Shown: in pieces, positions 1 to 14,411 of the stretch
How positions within the stretch are numbered: position 1 is the stretch's first letter
How the letters are laid out: the number at the start of each line of letters is the position of its first letter
Assembly: GCF_003044185.1 (NCBI RefSeq)
Contig: NZ_PYYB01000006.1
Coordinates: 1 to 64,000 of the forward strand
Reading direction: 5' to 3'
DNA length: 64,000 nt
Source of the DNA: Paraconexibacter algicola
GTDB lineage: Bacteria > Actinomycetota > Thermoleophilia > Solirubrobacterales > Solirubrobacteraceae
Notes under the pieces: model-generated
The model's input: only the letters and a program-made list of their open reading frames with translations
Told to the model about the DNA's origin: nothing
The model's database searches: none
Made by a program: the position numbers and the translations under genes

Positions 1-2192
1 CCCTGTCCACCGAAACGGGGGAACTCCACTTCGTGGGCGTAGTGCGCGGGGAGCTTGAGTTCGCTGTGGTCGTCGAGGCGGATGAGGACGCCGGTGCGGT
101 CCGCGCGTTCGAGCTGTCCGGCTTGGCCGTTGTGGACGCCGAGTCGGCGGTCGTTGTGGGTGGTAATGACGCGGTCCCCGACGGCGAACGCTCGGTCCTC
201 GGTCGTGAGGGCGTCGGGACCGAGCTGGCCGGCGGCGCGGAGGTGCTGGCGGGCGCGGGCGTTGAGGTCGGCGACGTCGCTGCGGCGGTTGGCGAGCATG
301 AGCGAGCTGCCGCCGTGCTCTTCGCGGTCGGTCCACCAGTCCTGGACGAGGGCGTCGCGGGCGCCTGGTGCGGTGGGTGCGAGGACGACGCGGTCATGCT
401 CGAGGTAGGCCCGTACGAAGTCCTCGACCTTGCCGTTACGGAGCTGGGCGAGCGCGTCGCGGTCCCAGGGTTCGCTTTGGCGGCGGACCTCGTGCAGCTC
501 GCTGGTGGGTCCTTGTTCGGCGAGGGCGCGGAAGGCGCCGCCTGCGTCGATCTCCGGGAGCTGGCGGTCGTCGCCGACCAGGACGATCCGTCCGTTGGCC
601 TGGAGGGCGGCGTCGGTGAGGGCGGCGAGGTCGCGGGTGCCGACCATTCCGGCCTCGTCGACGATCAAGACCGATCCAGGCTGCAGCCGGGCGGAGCCAT
701 CGAGCGCGAGCCGCAGGCGGGCGATGGTGGTGGTTGGGAGGGCGGCCTGGTCGCGCAGCTCGCACGCCGCCCGAGCCGACAGCGCACACCCGAGGACGGG
801 AACGCCGGCTTGTTCCCATGCGTCGCGGGCCGCGTCGAGCGCGAACGTCTTGCCGGTCCCAGCCGGCGCACGGAGAACCTGGACCGAGCCGGGGCCGCTC
901 GTGATCTGGCGGACGGCGTCGACCTGTTCGTCGCTGAGCGTCGGGCGGTCGCGGATCGCGCGCTCGGTCGTCTCGGCGGGGGAGGCTGCGTCGCAGCGGT
1001 CCGTGGTTCGGCTGGCTGCGTCGAGCAGTCGCTTCTCCGTTTCGAGGAGCTCGTGCGTGGTCCAGCGGCCGTCGTCGAGCCCGGCGATCTCCGGCCGGGC
1101 GAGCAGCAGTTCGGCCCGCCGCTCGACGTCTTGCGAAGCAGCGCCGGCCCGGGCGTGTTCCGCGAACGCCCGTACGACGTCGCGACGGTCGAACGAGGAC
1201 GCCTGGGCGGTCAGTCCCTCGGGGCCGAGGAGCCGGCGGATCTCCGACTCGATGTCGGCCGGGGTGAGGAGCGGGGCGGGCTCGCGATGCAGCAGCGCTG
1301 GGATGTCGCGCTCGCGGATGCCGCACGCTCGCGCCCGCTCGCGCCACTCCTCGCGGAGGCTGCGGTGGTCGACGTCGTGGGGCTTGGTGCGCCTGGTGTC
1401 CAGCGCGGCGACCTGGGCGGCGCGGGCGGTGTGCTCGCCCCGCTCGTCCATCGTCGCGAGGATCTCCGCCCGCCGCCGACTGAACGCCTCGACCGCCGAC
1501 CTCGACACCCCTTCGATGTCCGCCGTCCCGCTGCGCACCGGCTGCCACCGCACCCCAAGCCGATCACTCAGCTCCTCACGCAACGCCGCCTGGTAGACGT
1601 AGCCGGCCGTCTTGGCGTGCGCATAGATCGCCCGGCCGAACAGCGCGGTCCAGCGGCCGTCTGGACCCTGAGCCTGGTTAGCGACGACGACGTGTGTGTG
1701 GAGCAGCGGGTCGCCGGCCCGGGAGGTCCGGTGGCGGAACGCCGCGGCGACGAACCCGCGGCCTCGGAGCTGGACGGCACCGCCCTTGCCGCGGCGCACG
1801 ATGCACGCCTCCCGCTCCAGGTACCCGAGCGCCTCACGGACAGCGGCCTCGTGTCCGTCCCGGACCTGTGCCGAGACGTCCTCTTCGGCGATACCGAAGA
1901 CCAGGCCGACGCTCTTGGGAGCTTTGAAGCAGAGATCGAACCCCGCAACCGAGCCAGGCTTCAGCTCCGTGCGCAGTTGCTTGCCGGTCGCCGGATGCTG
2001 GGCGGCCAGTAGCCGGGTGACGCCGTCCTCGGGGACCTGTCCGCGGAGGCCGAGGTCCTCGGAACCGGAGCCCGTCCATTCGCCGGGAGCCTCGCCCACA
2101 CCGGCGTAGTAGTCCTCGGCTCCGGAGGCGACCTGACGGACGTAATAGCGGCCGGCATCGGGGGCAGCTCCAATTTTTCCGAGAGAAAGCAT
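1..2192 (-). CDS. MobF/TrwC-family conjugative relaxase-helicase (partial)
   Basis: Nicks and unwinds DNA at oriT during conjugation. The open frame runs from ATG at 2192 through the left edge, so only the first 730 residues are visible. The start MLSLGKIG followed by a Tyr-rich stretch (YY at about 15 and 27, then GEAPGEW) is typical of TrwC-like relaxases. The three-histidine metal site is H154, H165 and H167, in the context DPLLHTHVVVAN, with the same 11/2 spacing as TrwC. A RecD-like helicase follows: Walker A APAGTGKT with K448, and Walker B VDEAG with D512. No clear Shine-Dalgarno sequence is present, only an AG-rich run before the ATG. It marks the left part of the window as conjugative or integrated DNA. 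The long plus-strand frame opposite it (33-2012) is an antisense shadow. Confidence 0.93.
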   Translation of the reverse strand, partial: MLSLGKIGAAPDAGRYYVRQVASGAEDYYAGVGEAPGEWTGSGSEDLGLRGQVPEDGVTRLLAAQHPATGKQLRTELKPGSVAGFDLCFKAPKSVGLVFGIAEEDVSAQVRDGHEAAVREALGYLEREACIVRRGKGGAVQLRGRGFVAAAFRHRTSRAGDPLLHTHVVVANQAQGPDGRWTALFGRAIYAHAKTAGYVYQAALREELSDRLGVRWQPVRSGTADIEGVSRSAVEAFSRRRAEILATMDERGEHTARAAQVAALDTRRTKPHDVDHRSLREEWRERARACGIRERDIPALLHREPAPLLTPADIESEIRRLLGPEGLTAQASSFDRRDVVRAFAEHARAGAASQDVERRAELLLARPEIAGLDDGRWTTHELLETEKRLLDAASRTTDRCDAASPAETTERAIRDRPTLSDEQVDAVRQITSGPGSVQVLRAPAGTGKTFALDAARDAWEQAGVPVLGCALSARAACELRDQAALPTTTIARLRLALDGSARLQPGSVLIVDEAGMVGTRDLAALTDAALQANGRIVLVGDDRQLPEIDAGGAFRALAEQGPTSELHEVRRQSEPWDRDALAQLRNGKVEDFVRAYLEHDRVVLAPTAPGARDALVQDWWTDREEHGGSSLMLANRRSDVADLNARARQHLRAAGQLGPDALTTEDRAFAVGDRVITTHNDRRLGVHNGQAGQLERADRTGVLIRLDDHSELKLPAHYAHEVEFPRFGGQ

Positions 2193-2435
2193 CTCTCTCT
2201 ATGTCGCGCGAGTCGCCAACTACTCCCCCCTGAGTTCTGGGAAGGGGACAAACCAGAGGCGGCTTCGGGGTACTCAAGCGAACCCGATGACCTACGGCTG
2301 CCGCCGGGGGTAGCGCCGTTCGGAGGGCCCGGCGCGCCGCAGCTGCTTTCACCGACTGGGTGAAAGTCTGTGCCTGGCCGTTTCAGGGAGCTGAGAGCGC
2401 CTGACTGGACGGGGGCTTGGGGGCCGGGGCGACCC
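2193..2435. other. Intergenic region between divergent relaxase and wHTH-HEPN gene
   Basis: About 240 bases separate the relaxase start from the promoter of the rightward gene. Apart from the perfect inverted repeat at 2346-2366, I see no gene, terminator or tRNA here. An oriT often lies near a relaxase start, so this is a reasonable place for one, but I cannot identify a nic site by eye. Confidence 0.5.
2346..2366. promoter_or_regulatory. Perfect 8-bp inverted repeat, candidate operator
   Basis: CTTTCACC (2346-2353), five bases, then GGTGAAAG (2359-2366). It lies about 70 bp upstream of the -10-like hexamer of the rightward gene and about 150 bp upstream of the relaxase start. No T-run follows, so a dimeric repressor site is more likely than a terminator. 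Confidence 0.4.
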
Positions 2436-2441
2436 TAAGCT
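2436..2441 (+). promoter_or_regulatory. -10 element TAAGCT
   Basis: TANNNT hexamer ending 6 nt before an ATG at 2448 that opens a 10-codon leader ORF. The spacing fits a leaderless transcript, as at many other genes in the window. Confidence 0.4.
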
Positions 2442-2447
2442 GGGTCC

Positions 2448-2480
2448 ATGAGGTTCGGCTATGGGTGCGGGTCGGTATAG
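2448..2480 (+). CDS. Possible leaderless 10-residue leader peptide (MRFGYGCGSV)
   Basis: ATG at 2448 lies 6 nt after a -10-like hexamer. The ORF ends at TAG 2478-2480, three bases before the ATG of the wHTH-HEPN gene and in the same frame. If transcription starts where the hexamer predicts, ribosomes would translate this peptide first and reach the main gene by reinitiation. Composition gives little support for such a short ORF, so position is the main evidence. Compare the leader ORF before infC. Confidence 0.3.
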   Translation: MRFGYGCGSV

Positions 2481-2483
2481 GCG

Positions 2484-3374
2484 ATGGCTAGTGAGTTGAC
2501 GGCGGAGAACCTTGATCGGGTCCTGACCTGGCTGATGGGCTTGGACCGGCCGCTACAGATGGGCCTAACACCGGAAGCCCGCGTTGACGAGCTCGGTCTT
2601 ACTGAGCCGGAGGTGGACGACCTTCTCCGCGAGGCGGTGAGCCTCGGACTCCTCCGGGCGGACCGAGCCGACTACGGCCACACCGTTCGTTGGGTCCGCC
2701 TCGAGCTGACGCCGGCGGGCCTGCGCCATTGTGGACAGTGGCCGCCTCAAGGACGCGAGCACCACGCAGGCCCATGGGACGACGGCGACTGGGGCCGGAC
2801 GTGCGTGCCGATCCTCCGCCGGGTGCAGAGCAGCGGCTTTCGGGGTGACCTGTTGCCGGGGCTCTACGTGGGCGCGTCGCCGGAACAATGGCGACAGACA
2901 CTCGCTGCGCACGCGCTGCGCGAGGCCGGCTACCTCGACGGCTCGGACCAGGACAACCGCGCGATCTCGGCACTGCGCGTCAGCGCGCTAGGTCGAGAAG
3001 CACTAGATCCTCGTCCGCGTGATCCGCTCGATGAAGCGATTTTGTTGTTGAGGTCCTCGGCGACCAGTGCCGTCGTGCAAGCCGTTGAGGTGGCGCTTGG
3101 CAACCGGCTCCGTGCGCTGGACGAGCATCACTCCGAGTCTCGCGCGGAGCGGAGCGCGCCGCGGCTCTTGTCCACTCTGAACGATGAGCTGACCGGGAAG
3201 AACGGGCCGCAGCTCTACGGCAAGCACTGGAAGAAGACGATCGAAGCGGTGCTTGCCGTCAGGAACGAGTACGCCCACGGCCGGGGCGATGCACTGCCGG
3301 ACGATGTCGCGGTGTGGGTCATCTCGACCGTCCGGCTTCTTCTAGCGGAGCTGCCTTTGCCCGATCCCGGTTAG
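2484..3374 (+). CDS. Winged-helix protein with C-terminal HEPN/Abi-like domain (candidate defence gene)
   Basis: 296 residues. Residues about 1-80 read as a winged helix (ELGLTEPEVDDLLREA, ending in LTPAGLRHCG). Residues about 110-175 look like a second winged-helix-like unit. The C-terminal 120 residues are helical and contain R260-NEYA-H265 in the context AVRNEYAHGRG, an R-x4-H motif of the kind found in HEPN RNases and abortive-infection C-terminal domains. The stop overlaps the stop of the convergent ApeA-like gene by 4 bp. It lies between the relaxase and that gene in the lower-GC segment. Function is inferred: a DNA-binding or sensor front end with a possible RNase back end. It could instead be a non-catalytic HEPN regulator. 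Confidence 0.6.
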   Translation: MASELTAENLDRVLTWLMGLDRPLQMGLTPEARVDELGLTEPEVDDLLREAVSLGLLRADRADYGHTVRWVRLELTPAGLRHCGQWPPQGREHHAGPWDDGDWGRTCVPILRRVQSSGFRGDLLPGLYVGASPEQWRQTLAAHALREAGYLDGSDQDNRAISALRVSALGREALDPRPRDPLDEAILLLRSSATSAVVQAVEVALGNRLRALDEHHSESRAERSAPRLLSTLNDELTGKNGPQLYGKHWKKTIEAVLAVRNEYAHGRGDALPDDVAVWVISTVRLLLAELPLPDPG

Positions 3375-4591
3375 ACCAGAGGCCACGAGGCGTAGTGACG
3401 TTCCAGGAGCGTCTGGCGCTGGCCCTTCCGGATCCCGAGATTGCGCAAAAGGCACGCTTGCATGAGCGCAGCGACCCGCCGAGTCGAGACGACCATCTGA
3501 TCCTCGACCTGCGCTCGCCGAGCGTCGTCGACGTTGTTGAAGTGCGCGACGTAGCCGCGCGTGACCCCGATGAGATCGAGCGCCGGGTTCGTGCAACCGG
3601 TGAGCGAGGAGTCAAGTTGGCTGTACGTCCGGAGTTTCTTCAGGTCCGTCGTCTTGTGTCGGATCTCCGCGTACCGTTCGATGGCAGAGAACACCGTGAG
3701 GAATCTTCCGGGCGAGAACGAGTTGCCCTCGTTCGCGTGGTCGCCGAGGAGATCGAGCGCCGGCCAGACCTGTCGGTGCAGTCGCCACCAAGCGCGAATC
3801 GCCTTTGGGTAGTCGATGAGCTGGTCAGCCCCGAAGAGCTGCCGGCGTTCCCATTCACCTTTCAGAGGCGGACGACCTTGCCGCCATACCTCGATGCGCA
3901 AGGGTCGATCGACGTCAACGTAGATCTCCCGGGTCAGGTCGTCCGGCCGGTCGGCCGCGAGCGCCATCAACGCTCGCAGGGGCTGAGCGTGCTTGCTCAT
4001 CAGTGCAGCGATCGTTTGCGGTCGGCGCGGATTGACGACCATCACGGCGTCGGTTCTGGACCAAAAGTCCGAGCGGTGGCCGTACGGCGACGTGTCGCGA
4101 TGCCCGCAGAAGACCAGTTCGGCGCCGGGCACATCGACGCGATCACGTGTCGTCGGCTGAAACTCGACACGCAGGGTGGGGTCGTCGGCCGAAGGGAGAT
4201 TGGCCAGATGGATCCCGCTGTCGTCCCGCCACTGAGAGAGGGCGGCCGTGCCGTAGATCGCGCGCGGCCAGCGATCCTCAGGGAGGACCTGAGCACCGTA
4301 CGCCAGCGTCGAGCATCTGATGTGCGTCGGATGGTCGAGTAGCTGCATCCTGCTGACTCGGCAGTCGAAGAGACTCACCTCGCCACCGTTCCTGAGCAAG
4401 CCGTGAACGCCGAACGGAAGAGCGTCGAACGATCGAGGAAACCCACTGGCGTCGTCGATCAGTTCCAGCGTTGCGCCGTCCCGAGCCGACCAGCGGAGGA
4501 CTCCAGGGACAACGTCCTCGGTGCCAATGACCTGGAACCGTCCAACGACTACTTCCCCGGCGAGAAGGGCTTCCCGATCTTTCTTACTCAC
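3371..4591 (-). CDS. ApeA-like HEPN-domain anti-phage protein
   Basis: 406 residues. The N-terminal two thirds follow the pattern I associate with ApeA N-terminal domains: GRF near 19, VPGVLRW, then LELID, GVHGLL, VSLFDC and later LSQWRDDSGI. The C-terminal part (about 290-406) is helical, includes SPGRFLTVFSAIERY, and carries R345-GYVA-H350, an R-x4-H HEPN motif. ApeA is a single-gene anti-phage system with a HEPN putative RNase. Its stop overlaps the convergent wHTH-HEPN gene, and its start faces the tRNA-Gly 3' end about 225 bp away. Base use is less GC-rich than in the genes to the right, which fits horizontal acquisition. The assignment rests on recalled domain patterns, not a search. 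Confidence 0.65.
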   Translation of the reverse strand: MSKKDREALLAGEVVVGRFQVIGTEDVVPGVLRWSARDGATLELIDDASGFPRSFDALPFGVHGLLRNGGEVSLFDCRVSRMQLLDHPTHIRCSTLAYGAQVLPEDRWPRAIYGTAALSQWRDDSGIHLANLPSADDPTLRVEFQPTTRDRVDVPGAELVFCGHRDTSPYGHRSDFWSRTDAVMVVNPRRPQTIAALMSKHAQPLRALMALAADRPDDLTREIYVDVDRPLRIEVWRQGRPPLKGEWERRQLFGADQLIDYPKAIRAWWRLHRQVWPALDLLGDHANEGNSFSPGRFLTVFSAIERYAEIRHKTTDLKKLRTYSQLDSSLTGCTNPALDLIGVTRGYVAHFNNVDDARRAQVEDQMVVSTRRVAALMQACLLRNLGIRKGQRQTLLERHYASWPLV

Positions 4592-4718
4592 GAAGCGAGC
4601 GTAGTACGGCCCGAGATCCGCGCCACCGAGAACAAGTCAGCGTTGACGCGCCAGCGTTGTCTGCGAACCAGAGGCAATCGAATGGGGCTCGAGGCGACCT
4701 CGGCCAGTTGGCTTTCGA

Positions 4719-4749
4719 AAACTTGGTCCCGAGTTTGGGGACCAAGTTT
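4719..4749. repeat. Perfect 12-bp inverted repeat near the tRNA-Gly 3' end
   Basis: AAACTTGGTCCC (4719-4730), seven bases, then GGGACCAAGTTT (4738-4749). A partial third copy, GGGACCAATTG, follows at 4751. It lies between the ApeA-like start and the tRNA terminator. It could be a regulatory site for the ApeA-like gene or an integrase/excisionase arm site; the sequence does not decide. Confidence 0.55.
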
Positions 4750-4781
4750 CGGGACCAATTGTTCCGAACTCTCGCTCGGCC

Positions 4782-4808
4782 AAAAAGAAAACCCCGCCGG
4801 GGCGGGGC
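4782..4808 (-). terminator. Intrinsic terminator after tRNA-Gly
   Basis: On the minus strand a GC-only hairpin (CCCCGCC/GGCGGGG, 4792-4807) is followed by a T-rich run (4782-4791). It starts about 10 nt after the tRNA 3' end and should stop the tRNA transcript before it enters the acquired segment. Confidence 0.85.
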
Positions 4809-4816
4809 TTTCGTCA

Positions 4817-4890
4817 AGCGGCTGAAGAGACTCGAACTCTCGACCTTCTGCATGGCAAGCAGACGCTCTAGCCAACTGAGCTACAGCCGC
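4817..4890 (-). tRNA. tRNA-Gly(GCC)
   Basis: A complete cloverleaf on the minus strand: acceptor GCGGCTG/CAGCCGC with discriminator T, D stem GCTC/GAGC, anticodon stem TCTGC/GCAGA with loop TTGCCAT (anticodon GCC), and a T arm with TTCGAGT. No CCA is encoded. The 3' end faces the relaxase/HEPN segment, the usual orientation for an element integrated at a tRNA 3' end. Confidence 0.95.
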
Positions 4891-5682: not shown

Positions 5683-6189
5683 ATGGATCGCACGACGGCA
5701 GAGGGGATCGCCCGCGCCTGGGCCGACAGCCCGGAGCGGCGGTCGGAGGCGCACGAGGCCGGGCTCGGGCTCGTGCAGCGGATCGCGTCCGGCCTCGCCC
5801 AGCTGCCCGTCGAGCCGCGCAGCTGGGCGGTCGTCCCGCGCGTGACGCCCGAGCGGGAGGCGGTCGACGGCGACGTCACCGTCCTGCTCCTCACCGACAC
5901 GGCGCTCGTGAGCTGCGAGATCGACGTGCCGCGCCTGGAGGCATGGGAGATCGCCCTGACCGCGTTCCCGTTCCCGCTCGCCGTCCTGCAGTGGGCCGTC
6001 GTCGTGCAGTGGTTCGGCGCCGGCGAGGAGCCGTTCACCGAGCGTCACGTCACGGTGCTGCAGAGCGGCGAGGCGACCGTCGCGGTGCTCGGCGACGAGC
6101 GGCTCGAGGGCCGGGAGCCCGACCGCGAGGCACGCGCGTTCCGGGACGCGGTCGTCGCCGCGATCGACGCGGCCACCCCGACCGGCTGA
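5683..6189 (+). CDS. Conserved hypothetical protein
   Basis: 168 residues from ATG 5683. An earlier ATG at 5590 would add 31 unusual residues (Pro/Arg-rich, lower GC3), so the later start is preferred. Mixed alpha/beta protein without a signal peptide or clear membrane helix; the stretch AFPFPLAVLQWAVVVQWF is hydrophobic but contains charged flanks. Family not recognised. A bidirectional terminator follows, separating it from the convergent tRNA-Val. Confidence 0.6.
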   Translation: MDRTTAEGIARAWADSPERRSEAHEAGLGLVQRIASGLAQLPVEPRSWAVVPRVTPEREAVDGDVTVLLLTDTALVSCEIDVPRLEAWEIALTAFPFPLAVLQWAVVVQWFGAGEEPFTERHVTVLQSGEATVAVLGDERLEGREPDREARAFRDAVVAAIDAATPTG

Positions 6190-6206
6190 CCGACCCCGGA
6201 ACGGAG

Positions 6207-6230
6207 AAAGCCCCGCGGCTGCGGGGCTTT
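6207..6230. terminator. Bidirectional terminator
   Basis: Perfect 10-bp stem AAAGCCCCGC / GCGGGGCTTT around a GGCT loop. It works for both the rightward hypothetical gene and the leftward tRNA-Val, whose 3' end is 6 nt away. Confidence 0.85.
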
Positions 6231-6235
6231 CCGAG

Positions 6236-6308
6236 TGGGCGATACTGGGCTCGAACCAGTGACCTCCTGCTTGTCGAGCAGGCGCTCTCCCAGCTGAGCT
6301 AATCGCCC
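6236..6308 (-). tRNA. tRNA-Val(GAC) with C at position 33
   Basis: Full cloverleaf on the minus strand: acceptor GGGCGAT/ATCGCCC with discriminator A, D stem GCTC/GAGC, anticodon stem CCTGC/GCAGG with loop TCGACAA, and T arm ACTGG-TTCGAGC-CCAGT. Counting canonically, the anticodon is GAC (Val) and position 33 is C, not the nearly universal U. All stems pair perfectly. No CCA is encoded. Confidence 0.9.
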
Positions 6309-6320
6309 CTGGGGTGCAGG

Positions 6321-6326
6321 AGAGTA
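6321..6326 (-). promoter_or_regulatory. -10 element TACTCT of tRNA-Val
   Basis: TACTCT on the minus strand lies 12 nt before the mature tRNA-Val 5' end, matching the spacing at tRNA-Gly. Confidence 0.5.
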
Positions 6327-6375
6327 GCAACCCGCGCGCAAACGTGGCGCGCCGCGTGACGCGTGGTCCGGGCGC

Positions 6376-6381
6376 TAGGCT
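6376..6381 (+). promoter_or_regulatory. -10 element TAGGCT of tRNA-Cys/macro-domain transcript
   Basis: TAGGCT ends 12 nt before the tRNA-Cys 5' end. No separate promoter is visible for the macro-domain gene. Confidence 0.5.
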
Positions 6382-6393
6382 GTGCGCGCACCT

Positions 6394-6464
6394 GGCGACG
6401 TGGCGGAGTGGCTACGCAGCGGCCTGCAAAGCCGTGTACACCGGTTCGATTCCGGTCGTCGCCT
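6394..6464 (+). tRNA. tRNA-Cys(GCA)
   Basis: Acceptor GGCGACG/CGTCGCC with discriminator T at 6464. The anticodon loop CTGCAAA gives GCA, and the T arm contains TTCGATT. No CCA is encoded. The next base (6465) is the first base of the macro-domain frame. Confidence 0.94.
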
Positions 6465-7013
6465 TTGTCGCGGATCACCCTGCATCTCGGCGACATCACC
6501 ACGGACGGGGAGGCGGACGTCCTCGTGAACGCGGCCAACTCCGGACTGCTCGGGGGCGGCGGCGTCGACGGCGCGATCCACCGCGCGGCCGGGCCGGAGA
6601 TCCTGCCTGAGTGCCGTGCCCACGGCGGTTGCCCGACCGGGGAGGTGCGGGTGACCTCCGCCGGTCGCCTGCCCGCCCGCTTCATCGTCCACGCGGTCGG
6701 CCCGATCTGGCACGGCGGCGAGCGCGGGGAGCCCGAGCTGCTCGCGTCCTGCTTCGAGCGGGCGATCGCCGCCGCCGCCGAGCGCGGCGGTCGCCGCGTC
6801 GCGCTGCCGGCGATCTCGACCGGCATCTACCGCTACCCGCTGGAGCGCGCCGCCCACGTGGCGCTGACCGCCACCGCGCGGGCGCTCGCGCGGCACCCGG
6901 AGGTCGTCGAGGCGCGCTTCTGGCTCTTCGACGAGCGGGCGCACGCGACGTTCGCGCGCGTGCGCGACGACCTCGGGCTCCAGGAGGGTCCTGTTTCTTC
7001 AGGACCCCTCTAG
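6465..7013 (+). CDS. Macro-domain ADP-ribose-binding protein
   Basis: 182 residues from TTG 6465. Macro domains bind ADP-ribose and many deacetylate O-acetyl-ADP-ribose or remove ADP-ribose from targets. The core is clear: LHLGDIT, then VNAANSGLLGGGGVDGAIH, later VHAVGPIWHGG and LPAISTGIYRYP. The start must precede the first strand. The only start-like codon between it and the tRNA is TTG at 6465, directly after the tRNA-Cys discriminator, and no SD is present. RNase cleavage at the tRNA 3' end would leave a leaderless UUG mRNA, which is inference. The stop overlaps the convergent aminotransferase by 4 bp. Confidence 0.85.
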   Translation: MSRITLHLGDITTDGEADVLVNAANSGLLGGGGVDGAIHRAAGPEILPECRAHGGCPTGEVRVTSAGRLPARFIVHAVGPIWHGGERGEPELLASCFERAIAAAAERGGRRVALPAISTGIYRYPLERAAHVALTATARALARHPEVVEARFWLFDERAHATFARVRDDLGLQEGPVSSGPL

Positions 7014-8098
7014 GCGATCGCGGCGAGCAGCCGCTTGAGGTCCGACTGGTCGTTCCACGCACCGACCGACGCGCGGACCCACGGCAGCCCGGCGAACGAC
7101 CGCACGGCCACGCCCCGCTCGGCGCAGGCGGCGACGACCGCGTCCGGGTCCTCGGCCTTCCAGCTGACCAGGGTGCTGCGGCCCCGTGGAGCGACCTCGT
7201 GGCCCCGCTCGGCGAGCTGGTCGGCCAGGTCGGCGGCGAGCGCGGCGGCACGCGCGTGCACGTCCGCCCAGCCGGCGTCGGCGAGCACGTCGTGCGCGGC
7301 CACGCCGGCCAGGTACGCCTCCGCGGAGGTGGCGAACGCGTCGTGGGCGCGCGCGTCCGGCCAGGGCCGCGCCTCCAGGCCGGCCGAGGGCTCGGACAGG
7401 TGCGCGTAGGTCGGCATGTGCACCATCACCCGCTCCTGCCAGTCCGGGGAGATCCACAGCAGGCCGAGCCCGACCGGGCCGCACAGCCACTTCTGGCCGG
7501 CCGCGGCGTAGAAGTCGCAGCGCAGCGCCGCGACGTCGACGGGCACCGCGCCCGCCCCCTGGGCGCCGTCGAGCAGCAGCGGCACGTCCGCGGGCCGGGC
7601 GGCGAGGTCCTCCGGGGCGAGCTCCCCGGTGGCCCAGTGCACGTGGGAGCACGCGACGAGCTTCGTGCGCCGGCCGATGTGCGCGGCGATCCTGCGCAGC
7701 GGCACGACCTTCACCGTGATGCCGCGCAGGCGCCGGGCGGCCGACAGCGGGCCGAGCAGGCCGGGATGCTCGTCGTCGGCGGTGACGATCTCGTCCCCCG
7801 GACGCAGGTCCAGGCCCGCGATCACCCGCGCCATGCCCTCACTGGTCGAGGCGGTGACCGCGACGTCGTGCGGGGACTGCGCGCCGACGAGCTCGCCGTA
7901 CCGCGCGCGCAGCTCCTCGCGAGCCTCGCCCAGGCGCGGGTAGTAGTCGGCCGACCGGCCCTCCTCGGCGGCGCGCAGGGCGCTGTCGGCCCCGCGCTGC
8001 AGCGCCTCGGCGGCGAGCGGGCCGCAGGTCCCCGCGTTCAGGTAGGCGACCCGCTCGAAGACGGGGAAGTGGGCGCGGAGGGTGGAGGCGTCGGGCAC
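7010..8098 (-). CDS. Class V PLP-dependent aminotransferase (isopenicillin-N-epimerase/cysteine-desulfurase-like)
   Basis: 362 residues from GTG 8098. The fold begins with FPVFERVAYLNAGTCGPL and includes VTASTSEGMARV (phosphate-binding region), LLLDGAQGAGAVPVDV with the PLP-contacting Asp/Gln, and the Schiff-base lysine in AAGQKWLCGPVG. The active-site Cys loop of true cysteine desulfurases is not obvious, so the substrate is open. GTG 8098 is chosen because TATGCT (8105-8110, minus) lies 6 nt upstream, giving a leaderless start. A longer frame to 8257 would run back into the neighbouring gene. Convergent with the macro-domain gene. Confidence 0.85.
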   Translation of the reverse strand: MPDASTLRAHFPVFERVAYLNAGTCGPLAAEALQRGADSALRAAEEGRSADYYPRLGEAREELRARYGELVGAQSPHDVAVTASTSEGMARVIAGLDLRPGDEIVTADDEHPGLLGPLSAARRLRGITVKVVPLRRIAAHIGRRTKLVACSHVHWATGELAPEDLAARPADVPLLLDGAQGAGAVPVDVAALRCDFYAAAGQKWLCGPVGLGLLWISPDWQERVMVHMPTYAHLSEPSAGLEARPWPDARAHDAFATSAEAYLAGVAAHDVLADAGWADVHARAAALAADLADQLAERGHEVAPRGRSTLVSWKAEDPDAVVAACAERGVAVRSFAGLPWVRASVGAWNDQSDLKRLLAAIA

Positions 8099-8104
8099 CC
8101 GGCG

Positions 8105-8110
8105 AGCATA
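8105..8110 (-). promoter_or_regulatory. -10 element TATGCT of the aminotransferase
   Basis: Minus-strand TATGCT with 6 nt to the GTG start at 8098, the leaderless pattern seen across this window. Confidence 0.55.
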
Positions 8111-8139
8111 CGACGGGCGCCCGACCGTCCCCGGGTGGC

Positions 8140-8748
8140 TCAGCCGCAGACCGGCCAGGGGGACGCGCCGGCGCGCGCGTAGAGCATCGCCGCGCGGCGG
8201 TCCTGCTCGAGCTCGGGCGCGGCGGCCGGGTCGCCGCTGCCGCCGACGCTCGCCCACGTGCCCATGTCGAACTGGTACTTGCCGCGGTACCGGCCGCCGC
8301 CGCCGATCGCGCGCGGGTTCCCGCCCGACTCGCAGGCGGCGATCGACGCCAGCGCCGCGGGGATCGGCACGGCGGGTGCCCCGCCGGTGCGGCGCAGCGT
8401 CCGGATCTGCCGGCGCACGCGGGTGATGCGACGCTCGAGCCGCTCGACCGACCAGTCGTCGATGACCGCCCGGTAGGCGCGGGCGCGGAAGCGGCCGTCG
8501 CGCAGCGCGGCCGCCTTGCGGCCGAGTCGCACGGCGCGGTCGGTCAGCACCTCACGCGCGTGGTCCTCGAGCGCGTCGTGCACGACCGTGCCGTCGGGGA
8601 CGGGCAGGTCGATGAGCGGGACGGTCGCGGTCGCCGGCGCGGTGGCGGCGGGCGCCGGGAGGGCGGGGGCGGCGAGCGCGGCGGCTGCGGTCGCGGCGAC
8701 GGCGGTCAGGCCGAGGCGGCGGGGGACGGGGTTCGTGGTGGGGGGCAT
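8140..8748 (-). CDS. Secreted Rpf-like transglycosylase-domain protein
   Basis: 202 residues from ATG 8748. An N-terminal signal segment (PVPRRLGLTAVAATAAAALAAPALP) precedes a basic coiled region (about 60-125) and a C-terminal lysozyme-like fold of the resuscitation-promoting-factor type: SIAACESGGNPRAI with catalytic Glu at 140, then YRGKYQFDMGTWASVGG, ending in PVCG. Such proteins cleave peptidoglycan glycan strands during growth or resuscitation. An upstream in-frame GTG (8760) has AAGGA only 1 nt away, too close to be useful. The promoter region contains a LexA-type palindrome, and a leader of about 190 nt lies between them. Confidence 0.85.
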   Translation of the reverse strand: MPPTTNPVPRRLGLTAVAATAAAALAAPALPAPAATAPATATVPLIDLPVPDGTVVHDALEDHAREVLTDRAVRLGRKAAALRDGRFRARAYRAVIDDWSVERLERRITRVRRQIRTLRRTGGAPAVPIPAALASIAACESGGNPRAIGGGGRYRGKYQFDMGTWASVGGSGDPAAAPELEQDRRAAMLYARAGASPWPVCG

Positions 8749-8833
8749 GTGCGCATGCACGTCCTTTCGCGGCCGGTGGGCGGGCATGCGGGCGCACGCC
8801 GGCCCGGGCCGGTCGGTGGGCGACGGTGCAGAC

Positions 8834-8885
8834 AGGGACGGAGCGTCTCCTCGTGCCGGCGCAGGCCGGCGGCGCTCACGTCCCT
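8834..8885 (-). other. Long stem-loop in the 5' leader of the Rpf-like gene
   Basis: Minus-strand arms AGGGACGTGAGCG and CGCTCCGTCCCT (one bulged base) enclose an inner GCCGGC/GCCGGC hairpin. It lies 86 nt upstream of the start. I compared it with the c-di-AMP (ydaO) riboswitch that often precedes rpf genes in actinobacteria and do not see the conserved GGGGGAACC or GGGGTGAA segments. It is structured, but not a class I recognise. Confidence 0.45.
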
Positions 8886-8940
8886 CGGGTGGCGGCGAGA
8901 CGGTCGCCGAGACCCGGGTTCTGACCCGTCGAGGGCTCGA

Positions 8941-8946
8941 ACCCTA
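8941..8946 (-). promoter_or_regulatory. -10 element TAGGGT of the Rpf-like gene
   Basis: Minus-strand TAGGGT. A -35 region 17-18 nt upstream would fall inside the LexA-like palindrome, and the predicted leader is about 185 nt. Confidence 0.45.
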
Positions 8947-8956
8947 GCGCAAACCG

Positions 8957-8970
8957 CGAACACGTGTTCG
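8957..8970. promoter_or_regulatory. LexA (SOS) operator, CGAACACGTGTTCG
   Basis: A perfect 14-bp palindrome that matches the DinR/LexA consensus CGAAC-RNRY-GTTCG of Gram-positive bacteria at every position. It overlaps the predicted -35 region of the leftward Rpf-like gene. The thrS -10 lies 50 bp away on the other side, so thrS is a less likely target. Confidence 0.7.
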
Positions 8971-9019
8971 TACGGGTCCGAACGGTCGTGCGCGCGGGGC
9001 GGCGCAGGACGTCCGCCGA

Positions 9020-9025
9020 TACGCT
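9020..9025 (+). promoter_or_regulatory. -10 element TACGCT of thrS
   Basis: Nine nt separate the hexamer from the thrS ATG. No SD is present, suggesting a leaderless mRNA. Confidence 0.55.
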
Positions 9026-9034
9026 GCCACGACG

Positions 9035-10960
9035 ATGAAGGTCACCCTCCCCGACGGCACCGAGCTCGACCTCCCGGAGGGCGCCACCGGCCTCGACGCC
9101 GCCGCGGCGATCGGGCCCGGACTCGCCCGCGCCGCGCTCGCCGTCAAGCAGCAGGGCGAGGTCCGCGACCTCGCACGCCCGCTCGTCCCCGACGTGCCGC
9201 TGGAGATCATCACCAGGAGCTCCGGGCAGGACGCGCTGGACCTCGTGCGCCACGACACCGCGCACGTCCTCGCGGCCGCCGCGCTGGAGCTCTTCCCGGG
9301 CGTGAAGATCTCGATTGGACCGCCGATCGAGCACGGCTTCTACTACGACTTCGAGTTCCCGGACGGCGTGACCCTCACCGAGGCCGACTTCGCGGCCCTC
9401 GAGGCGAAGATGAAGGAGCACGTCAAGGCCGACGAGACCTTCGATCGCGAGGAGGTCACGGTCGAGGAGGCGATCGAGCGCTACAAGGCGCAGGACCAGC
9501 CCTACAAGGTCGAGCTGATCGAGGACCTGATCACCAACACGGGCGCGCAGACCGTCACGCTCTACACCAACGGTCCGTTCACCGACCTCTGCCGCGGCCC
9601 GCACATGCCGTCCACCGGTCGCATCGGCGCCTTCAAGCTGCAGTCGGTCGCCGGCGCCTACTGGCGCGGCGACGCGAACCGCACGATGCTCACCCGCGTC
9701 TACGGCACCGCGTTCTTCGACAAGAAGGAGCTGAAGGCGCACCTCGAGCGCCTCGAGCAGGCGAAGGCGCGCGACCACCGCCGGCTGGGTCCCCAGCTCG
9801 GTCTCTTCCAGTTCAGCGACGCCGCGCCGGGCAGCGCGTTCTGGCTGCCCGCCGGCACCACGGTCTTCAACGAGCTCGTCGCGCTCTCCCGTGAGATGGG
9901 GGAGCCGCGCGGCTACACCGAGGTCAAGACCCCCCAGATCTACGACTCCGAGCTGTGGAAGACCTCCGGGCACTGGGGCAAGTACCGCGAGAACATGTTC
10001 GTGACCGGGTCGGAGGGGCGCGAGTTCGGCGTCAAGCCGATGAACTGCCCGGGCCACGCGCACCTGTTCGGCATGCAGCAGTGGTCCTACAAGGACCTGC
10101 CCGTCCGCTACTCCGAGCCGGGCCTGCTGCACCGCGACGAGCTCAGCGGCGCGCTGCACGGCCTACTGCGCGTGCGGCACTTCTGCCAGGACGACGCCCA
10201 CGTCTTCTGCACCGAGGAGCAGATCCAGCAGGAGATCGCCGGCTGCCTGGAGTTCGCGTTCGAGACCTACCGGGTGTTCGGATTCGACGACGTCAAGGTC
10301 GAGCTCTCCACGCGGCCGGAGAACCGCCTCGGCAGCGACGAGCTGTGGGACCACGCCGAGGGCGCGCTGGAGAGCGCGCTGCGCAGCCAGGGTCTCGAGT
10401 ACGAGGTCAACGAGGGCGACGGCGCGTTCTACGGCCCGAAGATCGACCTGCACCTGACCGACTCGCTCGGCCGCTCCTGGCAGCTGGGGACCGTCCAGGT
10501 CGACTACCAGATGCCCGAGCGGTTCGGCCTCAGCTACGTCGGCGCGGACAACGCCGAGCACCGCCCGGTGATGATCCACCGAGCGCTGATGGGCTCCTAC
10601 GAGCGGTTCATCGGCATCCTCATCGAGGACACCGCCGGCGAGCTCCCCGTGTGGCTCGCGCCGACCCAGGCGCTCGTGCTGCCGATCGCCGACCGGCACG
10701 CCGACACCGCCCGCGCGGTCCGTGACGAGCTCCGGGCCGCCGGCGTCCGCGCCGAGGTGGACGAGCGCACCGAGTCGGTCGGGCGCAAGATCCGGGAGGC
10801 CGAGCTGCGCAAGGTCCCGTACATGCTCGTGGTCGGCGACCGCGAGATGGAGGAGGGCACCGTGAGCGTCCGTCGGCACCGCGAGGGCGACGAGGGCAGC
10901 GAGCCCGTGGCGGCCGTCGCGCAGCGGATCGCGGAGATCACCCGCGCCCGCAGTGCCTGA
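9035..10960 (+). CDS. thrS: Threonyl-tRNA synthetase
   Basis: 641 residues, normal for the family. An N-terminal TGS domain (about 1-65) is followed by the editing domain with the zinc-type histidines (HDTAH near 74-78). The class II catalytic core carries the zinc-binding C338 in MKPMNCPGHAHLF, motif 2 around the YSEPGLLHRDE loop, and motif 3 in HRPVMIHRALMGSYERFIG. The C-terminal anticodon-binding domain (PIADRH... to the end) is complete. It charges tRNA-Thr in the cytoplasm. A TACGCT hexamer sits 9 nt before the ATG and I see no T-box leader. It heads the thrS-infC-rpmI-rplT translation block. Confidence 0.97.
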   Translation: MKVTLPDGTELDLPEGATGLDAAAAIGPGLARAALAVKQQGEVRDLARPLVPDVPLEIITRSSGQDALDLVRHDTAHVLAAAALELFPGVKISIGPPIEHGFYYDFEFPDGVTLTEADFAALEAKMKEHVKADETFDREEVTVEEAIERYKAQDQPYKVELIEDLITNTGAQTVTLYTNGPFTDLCRGPHMPSTGRIGAFKLQSVAGAYWRGDANRTMLTRVYGTAFFDKKELKAHLERLEQAKARDHRRLGPQLGLFQFSDAAPGSAFWLPAGTTVFNELVALSREMGEPRGYTEVKTPQIYDSELWKTSGHWGKYRENMFVTGSEGREFGVKPMNCPGHAHLFGMQQWSYKDLPVRYSEPGLLHRDELSGALHGLLRVRHFCQDDAHVFCTEEQIQQEIAGCLEFAFETYRVFGFDDVKVELSTRPENRLGSDELWDHAEGALESALRSQGLEYEVNEGDGAFYGPKIDLHLTDSLGRSWQLGTVQVDYQMPERFGLSYVGADNAEHRPVMIHRALMGSYERFIGILIEDTAGELPVWLAPTQALVLPIADRHADTARAVRDELRAAGVRAEVDERTESVGRKIREAELRKVPYMLVVGDREMEEGTVSVRRHREGDEGSEPVAAVAQRIAEITRARSA

Positions 10961-10965
10961 GGCGT

Positions 10966-10971
10966 TATGCT
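10966..10971 (+). promoter_or_regulatory. -10 element TATGCT upstream of infC
   Basis: Immediately after the thrS stop. It lies 8 nt before a TTG that opens an 18-codon ORF and 64 nt before the infC start. Confidence 0.6.
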
Positions 10972-10979
10972 CCTGGCTG

Positions 10980-11036
10980 TTGACTGAATTCACTGCCCCC
11001 GCCGCGCGCACGATCGCGCCGCGTGTACACAGCTAG
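10980..11036 (+). CDS. Putative leader peptide overlapping the infC start
   Basis: TTG 10980 lies 8 nt after TATGCT and opens LTEFTAPAARTIAPRVHS. The TAG stop (11034-11036) shares its G with the infC GTG start (TAGTG). The position fits a leaderless leader ORF translationally coupled to infC. No residue run suggests classical amino-acid attenuation. Confidence 0.4.
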   Translation: MTEFTAPAARTIAPRVHS

Positions 11037-11824
11037 TGCCGGTTCCGCGTAGGTTCGACCGGCGCCCGCCCGAGCGGGACACCACCCGCATCAACGAGCG
11101 CATCCGCGTGCCCGAGGTGCGCCTGATCGACGAGACCGGCTCACAGGTCGGCGTCATGCGCACCGACGAGGCACTCCGCTACGCGCAGAGCCGCGATCTC
11201 GACCTGGTCGAGGTCGCCGCCGACGCGCGCCCGCCGGTGTGCCGCGTGCTCGACTACTCGAAGTACAAGTACGAGCAGGCGCAGAAGCAGAAGGCGGCCA
11301 AGAAGCACCAGACGCAGATCACGATCCGGGAGATCAAGTTCCGGCCGAAGATCGCGGAGCACGACTACTCGACGAAGAAGGGTCACGTCGAGCGCTTCCT
11401 GCGTCACAAGGACAAGGTCAAGATCACGATCATGTTCCGCGGCCGTGAGGTCACGCACCCGGAGCGCGGCGTGATGATCCTCGACCGCCTCGCGGAGGAC
11501 CTGAAGGAGCTCTGCGTCGTCGAGCAGCGCCCGATCCAGGACGGCCGCAACATGACGATGCTGCTCGGCCCGAGCAAGGCGGTCCTCGCCGGCACGCTCG
11601 AGGAGGACCAGGCGCGGGCGGCGGAAGCCGCCGCGGCCCAGGTCGAGGCCGAGGCCGCCGCGGACGCCGCCGTCGCCGAGCGCGACGAGGCCGCCGCGGC
11701 TGAGCAGGCCGCCGACGCGGCCCCTGCCGCGGACGAGGTCGCCTCCGAGGACGCCGCGGCGTCCGAGGAGCCTGCCGCGTCCGACGAGCCCGCCGCGTCC
11801 GACGACGCGGCGCCTGCGAGCTAG
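11036..11824 (+). CDS. infC: Translation initiation factor IF-3 with Ala/Glu-rich C-terminal tail
   Basis: 262 residues. IF-3 binds the 30S subunit, checks start-codon selection and prevents premature subunit joining. The N domain (INERIRVPEVRLID ... YARSRDLDLVEVA region) and C domain (IKFRPKIAEHDYSTKKGHVERFL, FRGREVTHPERG) are complete by about residue 185. A tail of about 75 residues, almost only Ala, Glu, Asp and Ser, follows; typical IF-3 is about 180 residues. The GTG start at 11036 lacks an SD and overlaps the stop of a short upstream ORF. rpmI and rplT follow, as in most bacteria. Confidence 0.95.
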   Translation: MPVPRRFDRRPPERDTTRINERIRVPEVRLIDETGSQVGVMRTDEALRYAQSRDLDLVEVAADARPPVCRVLDYSKYKYEQAQKQKAAKKHQTQITIREIKFRPKIAEHDYSTKKGHVERFLRHKDKVKITIMFRGREVTHPERGVMILDRLAEDLKELCVVEQRPIQDGRNMTMLLGPSKAVLAGTLEEDQARAAEAAAAQVEAEAAADAAVAERDEAAAAEQAADAAPAADEVASEDAAASEEPAASDEPAASDDAAPAS

Positions 11825-12595: not shown

Positions 12596-13327
12596 GTGAT
12601 CATCACCAGCCCCCACAACGAGACGCTCAAGCAGGTCCGCAAGCTCGCCGCCAAGCGGGAGCGGGCACGGGCGGGCGCGTTCGTCGCCGAGGGCGAGGAC
12701 CTGCTCGAGGCCGCCGACGCCGCCGGCTGGGAGCCGCGCGCCCGGCTGTGCGTCGCCGGCAGCGGCCTGCCCGGGACCGAGGTCGAGGCCGAGCTGCTGC
12801 ACGCCGTGTCCCAGCTGGGCTCCGGCACCCGCACGCTCGCGATCTACGACCAGCGCTACGCGCCGGCCGCGACCGACGGGCTGACCGTGCACCTGCACGG
12901 CGTCCACGACCCCGGCAACGTCGGGACCGTCCTGCGCGCCGCGCACGCCTTCGGGGCGGCGGCCGTCTCGCTCGGGCCCGGCACCGCCGACCCCTACGGT
13001 CCGAAGGCGGTCCGCGCCAGCATGGGAGCCGTGTTCGCCACCCCGCTCGTGCGCGCGCACGGCGGCGTCGGCGACCTCCCGGGCGCGACCGTGGCGCTCG
13101 TCGCCCGCGCCGGGACCGCGCTACCGCGGCTCGGCGCGCAGCTCGCCGACGGGCCCGTGACCCTGCTGGTCGGCGCCGAGCGCGACGGCCTTCCCGACGA
13201 CGTCGTCGCCGCGTGCGACCACGTCGCCCACATCCCGATCGAGGGCGAGTCGCTGAACGCGGCGATGGCCGCCGGCGTCGCCCTCTACGAACTGCGGCGA
13301 ATCCATATGGTGACGAGCGATGAGTGA
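12596..13327 (+). CDS. SpoU/TrmH-family RNA 2'-O-methyltransferase
   Basis: 243 residues from GTG 12596 (VIITSPHNETLKQVRKLAAKRERAR). The N-terminal substrate-binding part includes GAFVAEGEDLLEAA. The C-terminal SpoU fold has the trefoil-knot motifs: LHGVHDPGNVGTVLRAAHAFG, VRASMGAVFATPL, LLVGAERDGLPDDV and IPIEGESLNAAMAAGVALYE. It uses S-adenosylmethionine to methylate a ribose in rRNA or tRNA; a 23S rRNA target is likely from the L20/pheS context. The stop overlaps the pheS start by 8 bp, so it is coupled to pheS. Confidence 0.88.
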   Translation: MIITSPHNETLKQVRKLAAKRERARAGAFVAEGEDLLEAADAAGWEPRARLCVAGSGLPGTEVEAELLHAVSQLGSGTRTLAIYDQRYAPAATDGLTVHLHGVHDPGNVGTVLRAAHAFGAAAVSLGPGTADPYGPKAVRASMGAVFATPLVRAHGGVGDLPGATVALVARAGTALPRLGAQLADGPVTLLVGAERDGLPDDVVAACDHVAHIPIEGESLNAAMAAGVALYELRRIHMVTSDE

Positions 13328-14411
13328 CGTGCTTGACCGGATCGAGGCGCTGCGCGCCGAGGCCCTGACCGCGATCGAAGGCGCCGCCGACACCGCGGCG
13401 CTCGAGGATCTGCGGGTCCGGGTGCTCGGGCGCAAGGCGGAGCTGCCCAACATCCTGCGCGGGGTGGCCGAGCTGCCGCCCGAGCAGCGCGGGGCCGTGG
13501 GCAAGGCGGCGAACGTCGCCCGCAAGGCGGTCGAGGCCCGGCTCGAGGAGCGCGTCGCGGAGCTCGCCGCCGGTGAGCTCGACGCGCGGCTCGTCGCCGA
13601 CGCCGTCGACCTCACGCTGCCCGGGGCGCCGCCCCGGCCCGTCGGCCGCCTGCACCTGCTGACGCAGACCCGCCGCCAGATCGAGGACGTCTTCCTCGGC
13701 CTCGGGTTCCGGGTCGCCGAGGGCCCCGAGGTGGAGTGGGTCCACTACAACTTCGACGCGCTCAACCACGTGCCCGCGCACCCGGCCCGCAGCCGCTCGG
13801 ACACCTTCTACGTGCAGCCGCCCGACGGTGGACCCGGACCCGGGCTCGGCTCGCCCGACGAGATCGTCCTGCGCACGCACACCTCGCCGATGCAGGTCCG
13901 GTCGATGGAGGCGCAGAAGCCGCCGATCGCCGTGATCGTGCCCGGACGCGTGTACCGGCGCGACAGCGACGCCACCCACACGCCGCAGTTCCACCAGGTC
14001 GAGGGCCTGTGGGTCGACGAGGACGTCACCCTCGCCGACCTCAAGGGCGTGCTGCTGGCGTTCGCCCGCGCGCTCTTCGGCGACGAGCGCGAGGTCCGGC
14101 TGCGCCCGCACTTCTTCCCGTTCACCGAGCCGTCGGTCGAGGTCGACGTCACCTGCTTCCAGTGCTCGGGCACCGGGGCACTGCCGCGCACCGGCGCCCG
14201 CTGCAACCTCTGCAAGGGCACCGGCTGGCTGGAGATCCTCGGCTCCGGCATGGTCGACCCGAACGTCCTGGGCGGCGTCGACGGCTACGAGGACCTGCAG
14301 GGCTTCGCCTTCGGGATGGGCATCGAGCGCATCGCGATGCTCAAGCACGGCGTGCCGGACCTGCGCCTCTACTACGAGAACGACCTTCGGTTCCTGGAGC
14401 AGTTCGGATGA
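13320..14411 (+). CDS. pheS: Phenylalanyl-tRNA synthetase alpha subunit
   Basis: 363 residues. The N-terminal coiled coil (about 1-90) and class II core are complete: HLLTQTRRQIEDVFLGLGF, FDALNHVPAHPARSRSDTFYV, LRTHTSPMQVRSM, and motif 3 GFAFGMGIERIAMLKHG. A CxxC-x14-CxxC insertion (CFQCSGTG ... CNLCKGTGWLEILG) could bind zinc; shorter versions are common in this family. The start overlaps the methylase stop, and the stop overlaps pheT (ATGA). Confidence 0.97.
   Translation: MSDVLDRIEALRAEALTAIEGAADTAALEDLRVRVLGRKAELPNILRGVAELPPEQRGAVGKAANVARKAVEARLEERVAELAAGELDARLVADAVDLTLPGAPPRPVGRLHLLTQTRRQIEDVFLGLGFRVAEGPEVEWVHYNFDALNHVPAHPARSRSDTFYVQPPDGGPGPGLGSPDEIVLRTHTSPMQVRSMEAQKPPIAVIVPGRVYRRDSDATHTPQFHQVEGLWVDEDVTLADLKGVLLAFARALFGDEREVRLRPHFFPFTEPSVEVDVTCFQCSGTGALPRTGARCNLCKGTGWLEILGSGMVDPNVLGGVDGYEDLQGFAFGMGIERIAMLKHGVPDLRLYYENDLRFLEQFG

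What the first reader, a model, noticed from the sequence alone, without database searches (positions are those of the whole stretch)
2484..4591. Two convergent HEPN-type genes between a relaxase and a tRNA: candidate anti-phage module
Both genes carry an R-x4-H motif in a helical C-terminal domain (R260/H265 and R345/H350). One has an ApeA-like N-terminal domain; the other has a tandem winged-helix front end I cannot match to a named system. They overlap tail-to-tail by 4 bp, so each could limit the other by antisense transcription. They lie in lower-GC DNA beside a conjugative relaxase, where defence genes often sit. ApeA is described as a single-gene system, so a dedicated wHTH-HEPN partner would be new.
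Basis: partly seen in the sequence, partly recalled or inferred. Interest (0 to 1): 0.75.

Follow-up and report, generated by a model that had tools for sequence, protein, structure and literature searches.

The report
ApeA and orphan HEPN cargo genes
Two unrelated genes that look like RNA-cutting, phage-triggered suicide enzymes sit at one end of a mobile DNA element inserted in a tRNA gene; one belongs to the known ApeA family, the other is a nearly unique relative, and nothing shows that they work as a pair.

Summary
Both genes exist as described: A (2484-3374, +, 296 aa) and B (3371-4591, -, 406 aa) overlap tail to tail by 4 nt. B is an ApeA-family protein: Pfam ApeA_NTD1 scores 40.8 bits against a cut-off of 25.5, and R345/Y347/H350 are invariant in five homologues. 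A has no recognisable family. Its C-terminal 116 residues are very probably a HEPN domain: in a structural alignment of a low-confidence model the top 13 entries are HEPN or HEPN-like folds, and the motif is RNEYAHG. Residues ~6-76 look like one winged helix; the second is not supported. The new finding is the setting: a 67-bp exact repeat of the tRNA-Gly 3' end (4792-4858) recurs on another contig beside a tyrosine integrase and the missing relaxase C-terminus. The genes are therefore cargo at one end of a ~15.7-kb tRNA-Gly-integrated MobF element. The claim of a dedicated pair fails: 14 ApeA genes in 13 other genomes have no A-like neighbour, and A's only relative is a frame-broken fragment without ApeA. 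Likeliest reading: two independent abortive-infection RNase genes on one element. ApeA is a known kind; A is a divergent new wHTH-HEPN member.

The parts
3..2192 (-). N-terminal 730 aa of a TrwC/MobF relaxase-helicase; truncated by the contig end, the C-terminal part begins at base 1 of contig C3 of the same genome
   Evidence: Pfam TrwC 7e-85, AAA_30 1e-56; C3:1-702 matches UvrD_C_2; window starts at base 1 of contig C6
2484..3374 (+). Gene A: orphan protein, 296 aa, winged helix (about residues 6-76) and C-terminal HEPN-type domain (about residues 181-296)
   Evidence: Coding by codon structure; winged helix Z about 5; HEPN entries fill the top 13 rows; RNEYAHG at residue 260
3371..4591 (-). 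Gene B: ApeA-family protein, 406 aa (ApeA_NTD1 + HEPN_Apea)
   Evidence: Pfam 40.8 bits vs cut-off 25.5; PADLOC PDC-S58 and Cas13-ApeA; catalytic residues invariant
3371..3374 (.). 4-nt tail-to-tail overlap (TTAG)
   Evidence: Sequence
4817..4890 (-). tRNA-Gly (gcc), integration target of the element
   Evidence: ARAGORN
4792..4858 (.). 67-bp attachment-site repeat (tRNA-Gly 3' part and terminator), identical to G000:C3:10761-10827
   Evidence: Exact match

Best explanation
Two separate HEPN ribonuclease genes are carried as cargo at the tRNA end of a ~15.7-kb MobF integrative element (tyrosine integrase, TrwC relaxase) that recombined into the 3' end of tRNA-Gly. B is an ApeA-family abortive-infection protein: its beta-rich N-terminal domain senses an infection signal and its HEPN domain, working as a dimer, then cuts cellular RNA and stops growth before phage release. 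A is an independent effector or regulator whose winged helix binds nucleic acid and whose HEPN domain is an RNase. Shown here: the genes, B's family membership, B's conserved catalytic residues and the element's boundaries. Supported but not proven: the HEPN fold and single winged helix of A. Inferred: RNase activity, the signals sensed and anti-phage function.
For: B matches ApeA_NTD1 above the curated cut-off and PADLOC PDC-S58 and Cas13-ApeA. R345, Y347, H350 and E305 are invariant in five homologues. A's C-terminal model aligns to HEPN or HEPN-like structures in all top 13 rows, Z 6.2-8.2, ahead of designed bundles at 5.9 or less; its motif RNEYAHG has a polar residue after R, as described for HEPN (PMC3710099). 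A and B share a codon signature unlike the host's. A 67-bp exact tRNA-Gly repeat links C6 and C3, the integrase lies ~120 bp from the second copy, and the relaxase C-terminus starts C3. The ApeA homologue in G209 also sits beside a related TrwC relaxase and an integrase. No A-like gene lies beside 14 other ApeA genes.
Against: The models of A are poor (pLDDT 40.8 and 53.0), Z under 13 can be chance for helical bundles by the tool's own note, and Foldseek alone gave no significant hit. B's HEPN_Apea score is below the Pfam cut-off, and B has G where most HEPNs have a polar residue after R. No experiment shows activity. The two contigs were not physically joined.
Confidence: 0.72

Rival explanations
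1. A and B form one dedicated two-gene defence module in which A (winged helix + HEPN) senses DNA or restrains ApeA by binding or HEPN heterodimerisation.
For: Adjacent with a 4-nt overlap; the same acquired codon signature; both HEPN-type. A type IX retron does pair a winged-helix protein with a HEPN RNase (PMC13405049).
Against: None of 14 other ApeA genes has an A-like or strict-motif second HEPN neighbour; the only A relative has no ApeA nearby; convergent orientation excludes a shared operon.
Confidence: 0.08
2. A is not a defence effector but a regulator of the mobile element (winged-helix DNA-binding protein whose HEPN-like domain is only a dimerisation module), lying beside the relaxase promoter; B alone is the defence gene.
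For: A starts 290 bp from the divergent relaxase start, the usual place of an element regulator; its winged helix resembles DtxR/MarR regulators.
Against: A keeps the complete RNEYAHG motif, also kept in its distant broken relative, which suggests selection for catalysis. The related TrwC elements in G209 and on C1 of this genome have no A-like gene.
Confidence: 0.15
3. A is not a HEPN protein at all; the motif and the helical-bundle alignment are coincidence.
For: No profile hit passes any cut-off; low model confidence.
Against: The top 13 structural rows are all HEPN or HEPN-like, the weak profile hits are mostly HEPN families at the same place, and the RNEYAHG context is rare.
Confidence: 0.1

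Closest known systems
ApeA (Pfam PF18862 + PF18739; PADLOC Cas13-ApeA / PDC-S58)
   Same: B has the same two-domain order and length class and an invariant R-x4-H; it lies on a mobile element.
   Different: B is a divergent branch: the HEPN_Apea score is below cut-off and G replaces N after R. A has no counterpart in ApeA systems.
HEPN superfamily toxins and abortive-infection proteins (HepT/MntA, HepS, RiboL-PSP-HEPN)
   Same: A's C-terminal model aligns best with HepT, HepS and other HEPN structures; RN-x-Y-x-H-G motif.
   Different: A has an N-terminal winged helix, no nucleotidyltransferase partner gene, and no sequence family.
Type IX retron (winged-helix protein + HEPN RNase)
   Same: Combines a winged helix with a HEPN RNase.
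   Different: In the retron they are two proteins in one operon with an RT and ncRNA; its HEPN lacks the canonical motif (PMC13405049). No RT was seen here in the genes read around A.
Integrative MobF (TrwC) elements of Actinobacteria
   Same: tRNA target, tyrosine integrase at one end, TrwC relaxase, cargo genes.
   Different: Small (~15.7 kb), and no conjugation ATPase or mating-channel gene was recognised in the genes scanned, so probably mobilisable rather than self-transmissible (inference).

Membership tests
ApeA (gene B) | ApeA N-terminal domain (PF18862) above curated cut-off | tested here: met
   40.8 bits vs 25.5
ApeA (gene B) | HEPN_Apea domain (PF18739) with conserved R-x4-H | tested here: met
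   Profile score 19.9 is under the 24.4 cut-off, but close relatives pass it and R345/Y347/H350 are invariant
ApeA (gene B) | Anti-phage activity that depends on the HEPN residues | not testable with these tools
   Needs phage challenge
HEPN superfamily (gene A) | HEPN helical fold | tested here: inconclusive
   VIA-align top 13 entries all HEPN or HEPN-like, Z up to 8.2, but on a model of pLDDT 53
HEPN superfamily (gene A) | Rx4-6H motif with polar residue after R | tested here: met
   RNEYAHG at residue 260, kept in the only relative
Dedicated ApeA + wHTH-HEPN two-gene system | Conserved co-occurrence | tested here: not met
   0 of 14 other ApeA genes, some on short contigs
Type IX retron (gene A) | RT and ncRNA in the same operon | tested here: not met
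   No RT among the genes read at the locus; an ncRNA was not searched for
Integrative MobF element | Direct repeat of the tRNA 3' end at both borders, integrase at one end | tested here: met
   67-bp exact repeat, Phage_integrase 4.5e-20 at C3:9317-10642

The most novel reading that the evidence does not exclude
A founds a new winged-helix-HEPN effector family that directly senses invading nucleic acid and acts together with, or restrains, the ApeA beside it, so that two HEPN RNases with different triggers form one layered module.
Probability: 0.08. Interest if true: 0.65.

Novelty: new member of a known kind. Interest (0 to 1): 0.3.

Why it matters
It places a divergent ApeA as cargo of a MobF tRNA-integrated element in a Solirubrobacteraceae-type lineage, and a second such ApeA beside a related relaxase (G209) suggests that these elements move ApeA around. 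Gene A would be a lead for an undescribed wHTH-HEPN effector if its activity were shown.

Tried and rejected
Searches for A relatives: plasmids, phages, viral contigs (two scans), genome contigs (two scans), and the genome search over the order and over samples of class and phylum. They gave only the frame-broken fragment in JAJCYD010000001. A search with the N-terminal 100 aa gave what look on inspection like chance or out-of-frame hits. Single-sequence AlphaFold of full-length A was poor, and Foldseek of the HEPN model gave nothing significant. Profile comparison of A's HEPN with the ApeA alignment gave no relation (probability 0.2%), so there is no sign that A and B are recent duplicates. 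Type IX retron membership for A was considered because of the RTasHEPN hit and rejected: no RT was seen nearby, and the motif differs from type IX HEPNs. RNAFAHK in another gene of the genome looked like a third HEPN but reads as 2-isopropylmalate synthase (identified by recall of the RNAFAHKGGLH motif): a reminder of false positives. An empty integration site in congeners could not be shown, because the flanking gene has no clear orthologue there.

Full report
Observation. The two ORFs are at the stated places and overlap by 4 nt, TTAG at 3371-3374. R260/H265 of A (RNEYAHG) and R345/H350 of B (RGYVAHF) are present. The relaxase at 3-2192 (-) is TrwC (E 7e-85) and runs off the contig, because window base 1 is base 1 of contig C6. 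tRNA-Gly lies at 4817-4890 (-). GC is 0.670 for A, 0.640 for B and 0.742 for the rest of the window beyond 4,900. Codon-usage log-odds per codon are -0.096 (A) and -0.090 (B), against 0.22 for the relaxase and mostly 0.2-0.55 for host genes. A is therefore a real coding frame and shares B's foreign signature.

Gene B is ApeA-family. ApeA_NTD1 scores 40.8 bits (cut-off 25.5) and HEPN_Apea 19.9 (cut-off 24.4). PADLOC gives PDC-S58 (4e-11) and Cas13-ApeA (2.5e-8). Three homologues at 37-43% identity occur in the same order (G110, G209, G093). In an alignment with these and a fourth ApeA, E305, Y307, R345, Y347 and H350 are invariant. ApeA is a HEPN-containing anti-phage protein (PMC7699616; PMC3710099). 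[quoted passage not shown]

Gene A. No Pfam or NCBIfam family matches. The weak hits are mostly HEPN models covering the motif region (PADLOC RTasHEPN E 0.059; Pfam HEPN_RiboL-PSP E 0.14); a PHROG of unknown function covers the same region at E 0.15. An R-x4-H string is worthless on its own (162 of 291 proteins), but RN-x3-HG is found only in A and its relative. AlphaFold on residues 181-296 reached only pLDDT 53 and Foldseek found nothing significant. VIA-align nevertheless put HEPN or HEPN-like entries in all of the top 13 rows (Z 6.2-8.2, 101-109 residues), above designed bundles at 5.9 or less. Some of these entries are named only as structural-genomics targets and are counted as HEPN from my own knowledge of the fold. 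By the tool's own caution such Z values can be chance for helical bundles; the uniformity of the list and the motif make HEPN very likely (inference, about 0.85). In the full-length model residues ~6-76 align with DtxR/IdeR, MarR and Z-alpha winged helices at Z about 5. A second winged helix is not supported.

Rarity of A. No match appeared in plasmids, phages or viral contigs, nor by protein pattern in 84,980 genomes. Across 232 genomes of the order and samples of 399 (class) and 346 (phylum), the only credible hit is a 67-residue stretch at 37-38% identity in G096, which is contig JAJCYD010000001 of a Solirubrobacteraceae MAG. It is frame-broken, lies just upstream of a transposase-like ORF, and has no ApeA or TrwC relaxase nearby.

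Setting. The tRNA-Gly 3' part plus its terminator (4792-4858, 67 bp) recurs exactly at C3:10761-10827, where no complete tRNA is found. C3:9317-10642 is a tyrosine integrase, and C3:1-702 carries a helicase C-terminal domain as expected for the missing end of the relaxase. Contigs C6 and C3 therefore very probably meet inside the relaxase gene, giving an element of about 4.86 + 10.83 = 15.7 kb with A and B at its tRNA end. The C3 part also holds three ECF-type sigma factors and several unknown genes. In G209 the ApeA homologue also adjoins a related TrwC relaxase and an integrase. A second, 47%-identical TrwC in the same genome lies near an AbiEii gene.

Pair test. ApeA_NTD1 is over its cut-off in 12 of 399 genomes of the class. 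Fourteen other ApeA genes in 13 genomes were inspected with their neighbours. Scanning 147.8 kb of these neighbourhoods with A gave no credible hit (best E 0.42), and the strict HEPN motif appeared in no neighbour gene except RDLYEH in a relaxase and RHLWVH in an apparently non-coding frame. Some contigs end close to ApeA, so a few neighbours were not visible. The dedicated-pair idea is not supported.

Conclusion. The best reading is two independent HEPN-type genes carried on a MobF tRNA-Gly element. B is a known kind (ApeA), most likely an abortive-infection RNase. A is a divergent new wHTH-HEPN member whose activity is inferred. Antisense control across a 4-nt overlap has no support.

Noticed in passing
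window 1-4858 with G000:C3:1-10827 (L033): A ~15.7-kb tRNA-Gly-integrated MobF element split by the assembly at the relaxase gene; its other half carries three ECF-type sigma factors, unknown genes and a tyrosine integrase.
   Followed up: partly
L034 (G000:C1:2479000-2497000), 6998-8209 + and 8658-11540 -: A second TrwC relaxase in the same genome (47% identical) lies near an AbiEii-type toxin gene.
   Followed up: partly
L049 (G073:C83), 5790-7160 + and 12769-14172 +: Two different ApeA genes about 5.6 kb apart on one contig.
   Followed up: no
window 4717-4764: Overlapping inverted and direct repeats (AAACTTGGTCCC/GGGACCAAGTTT) next to the attachment repeat, with a related 35-bp stretch next to the other copy on C3; possible integrase arm sites.
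   Followed up: partly
L010 19047-20000 + (G000:C6, outside the window): RNAFAHK in an ORF that reads as 2-isopropylmalate synthase mimics a HEPN motif: a useful false positive.
   Followed up: yes
L022 8698-10017 - (G110): An unknown 439-aa protein directly upstream of, and on the same strand as, a close ApeA homologue; not identified.
   Followed up: no
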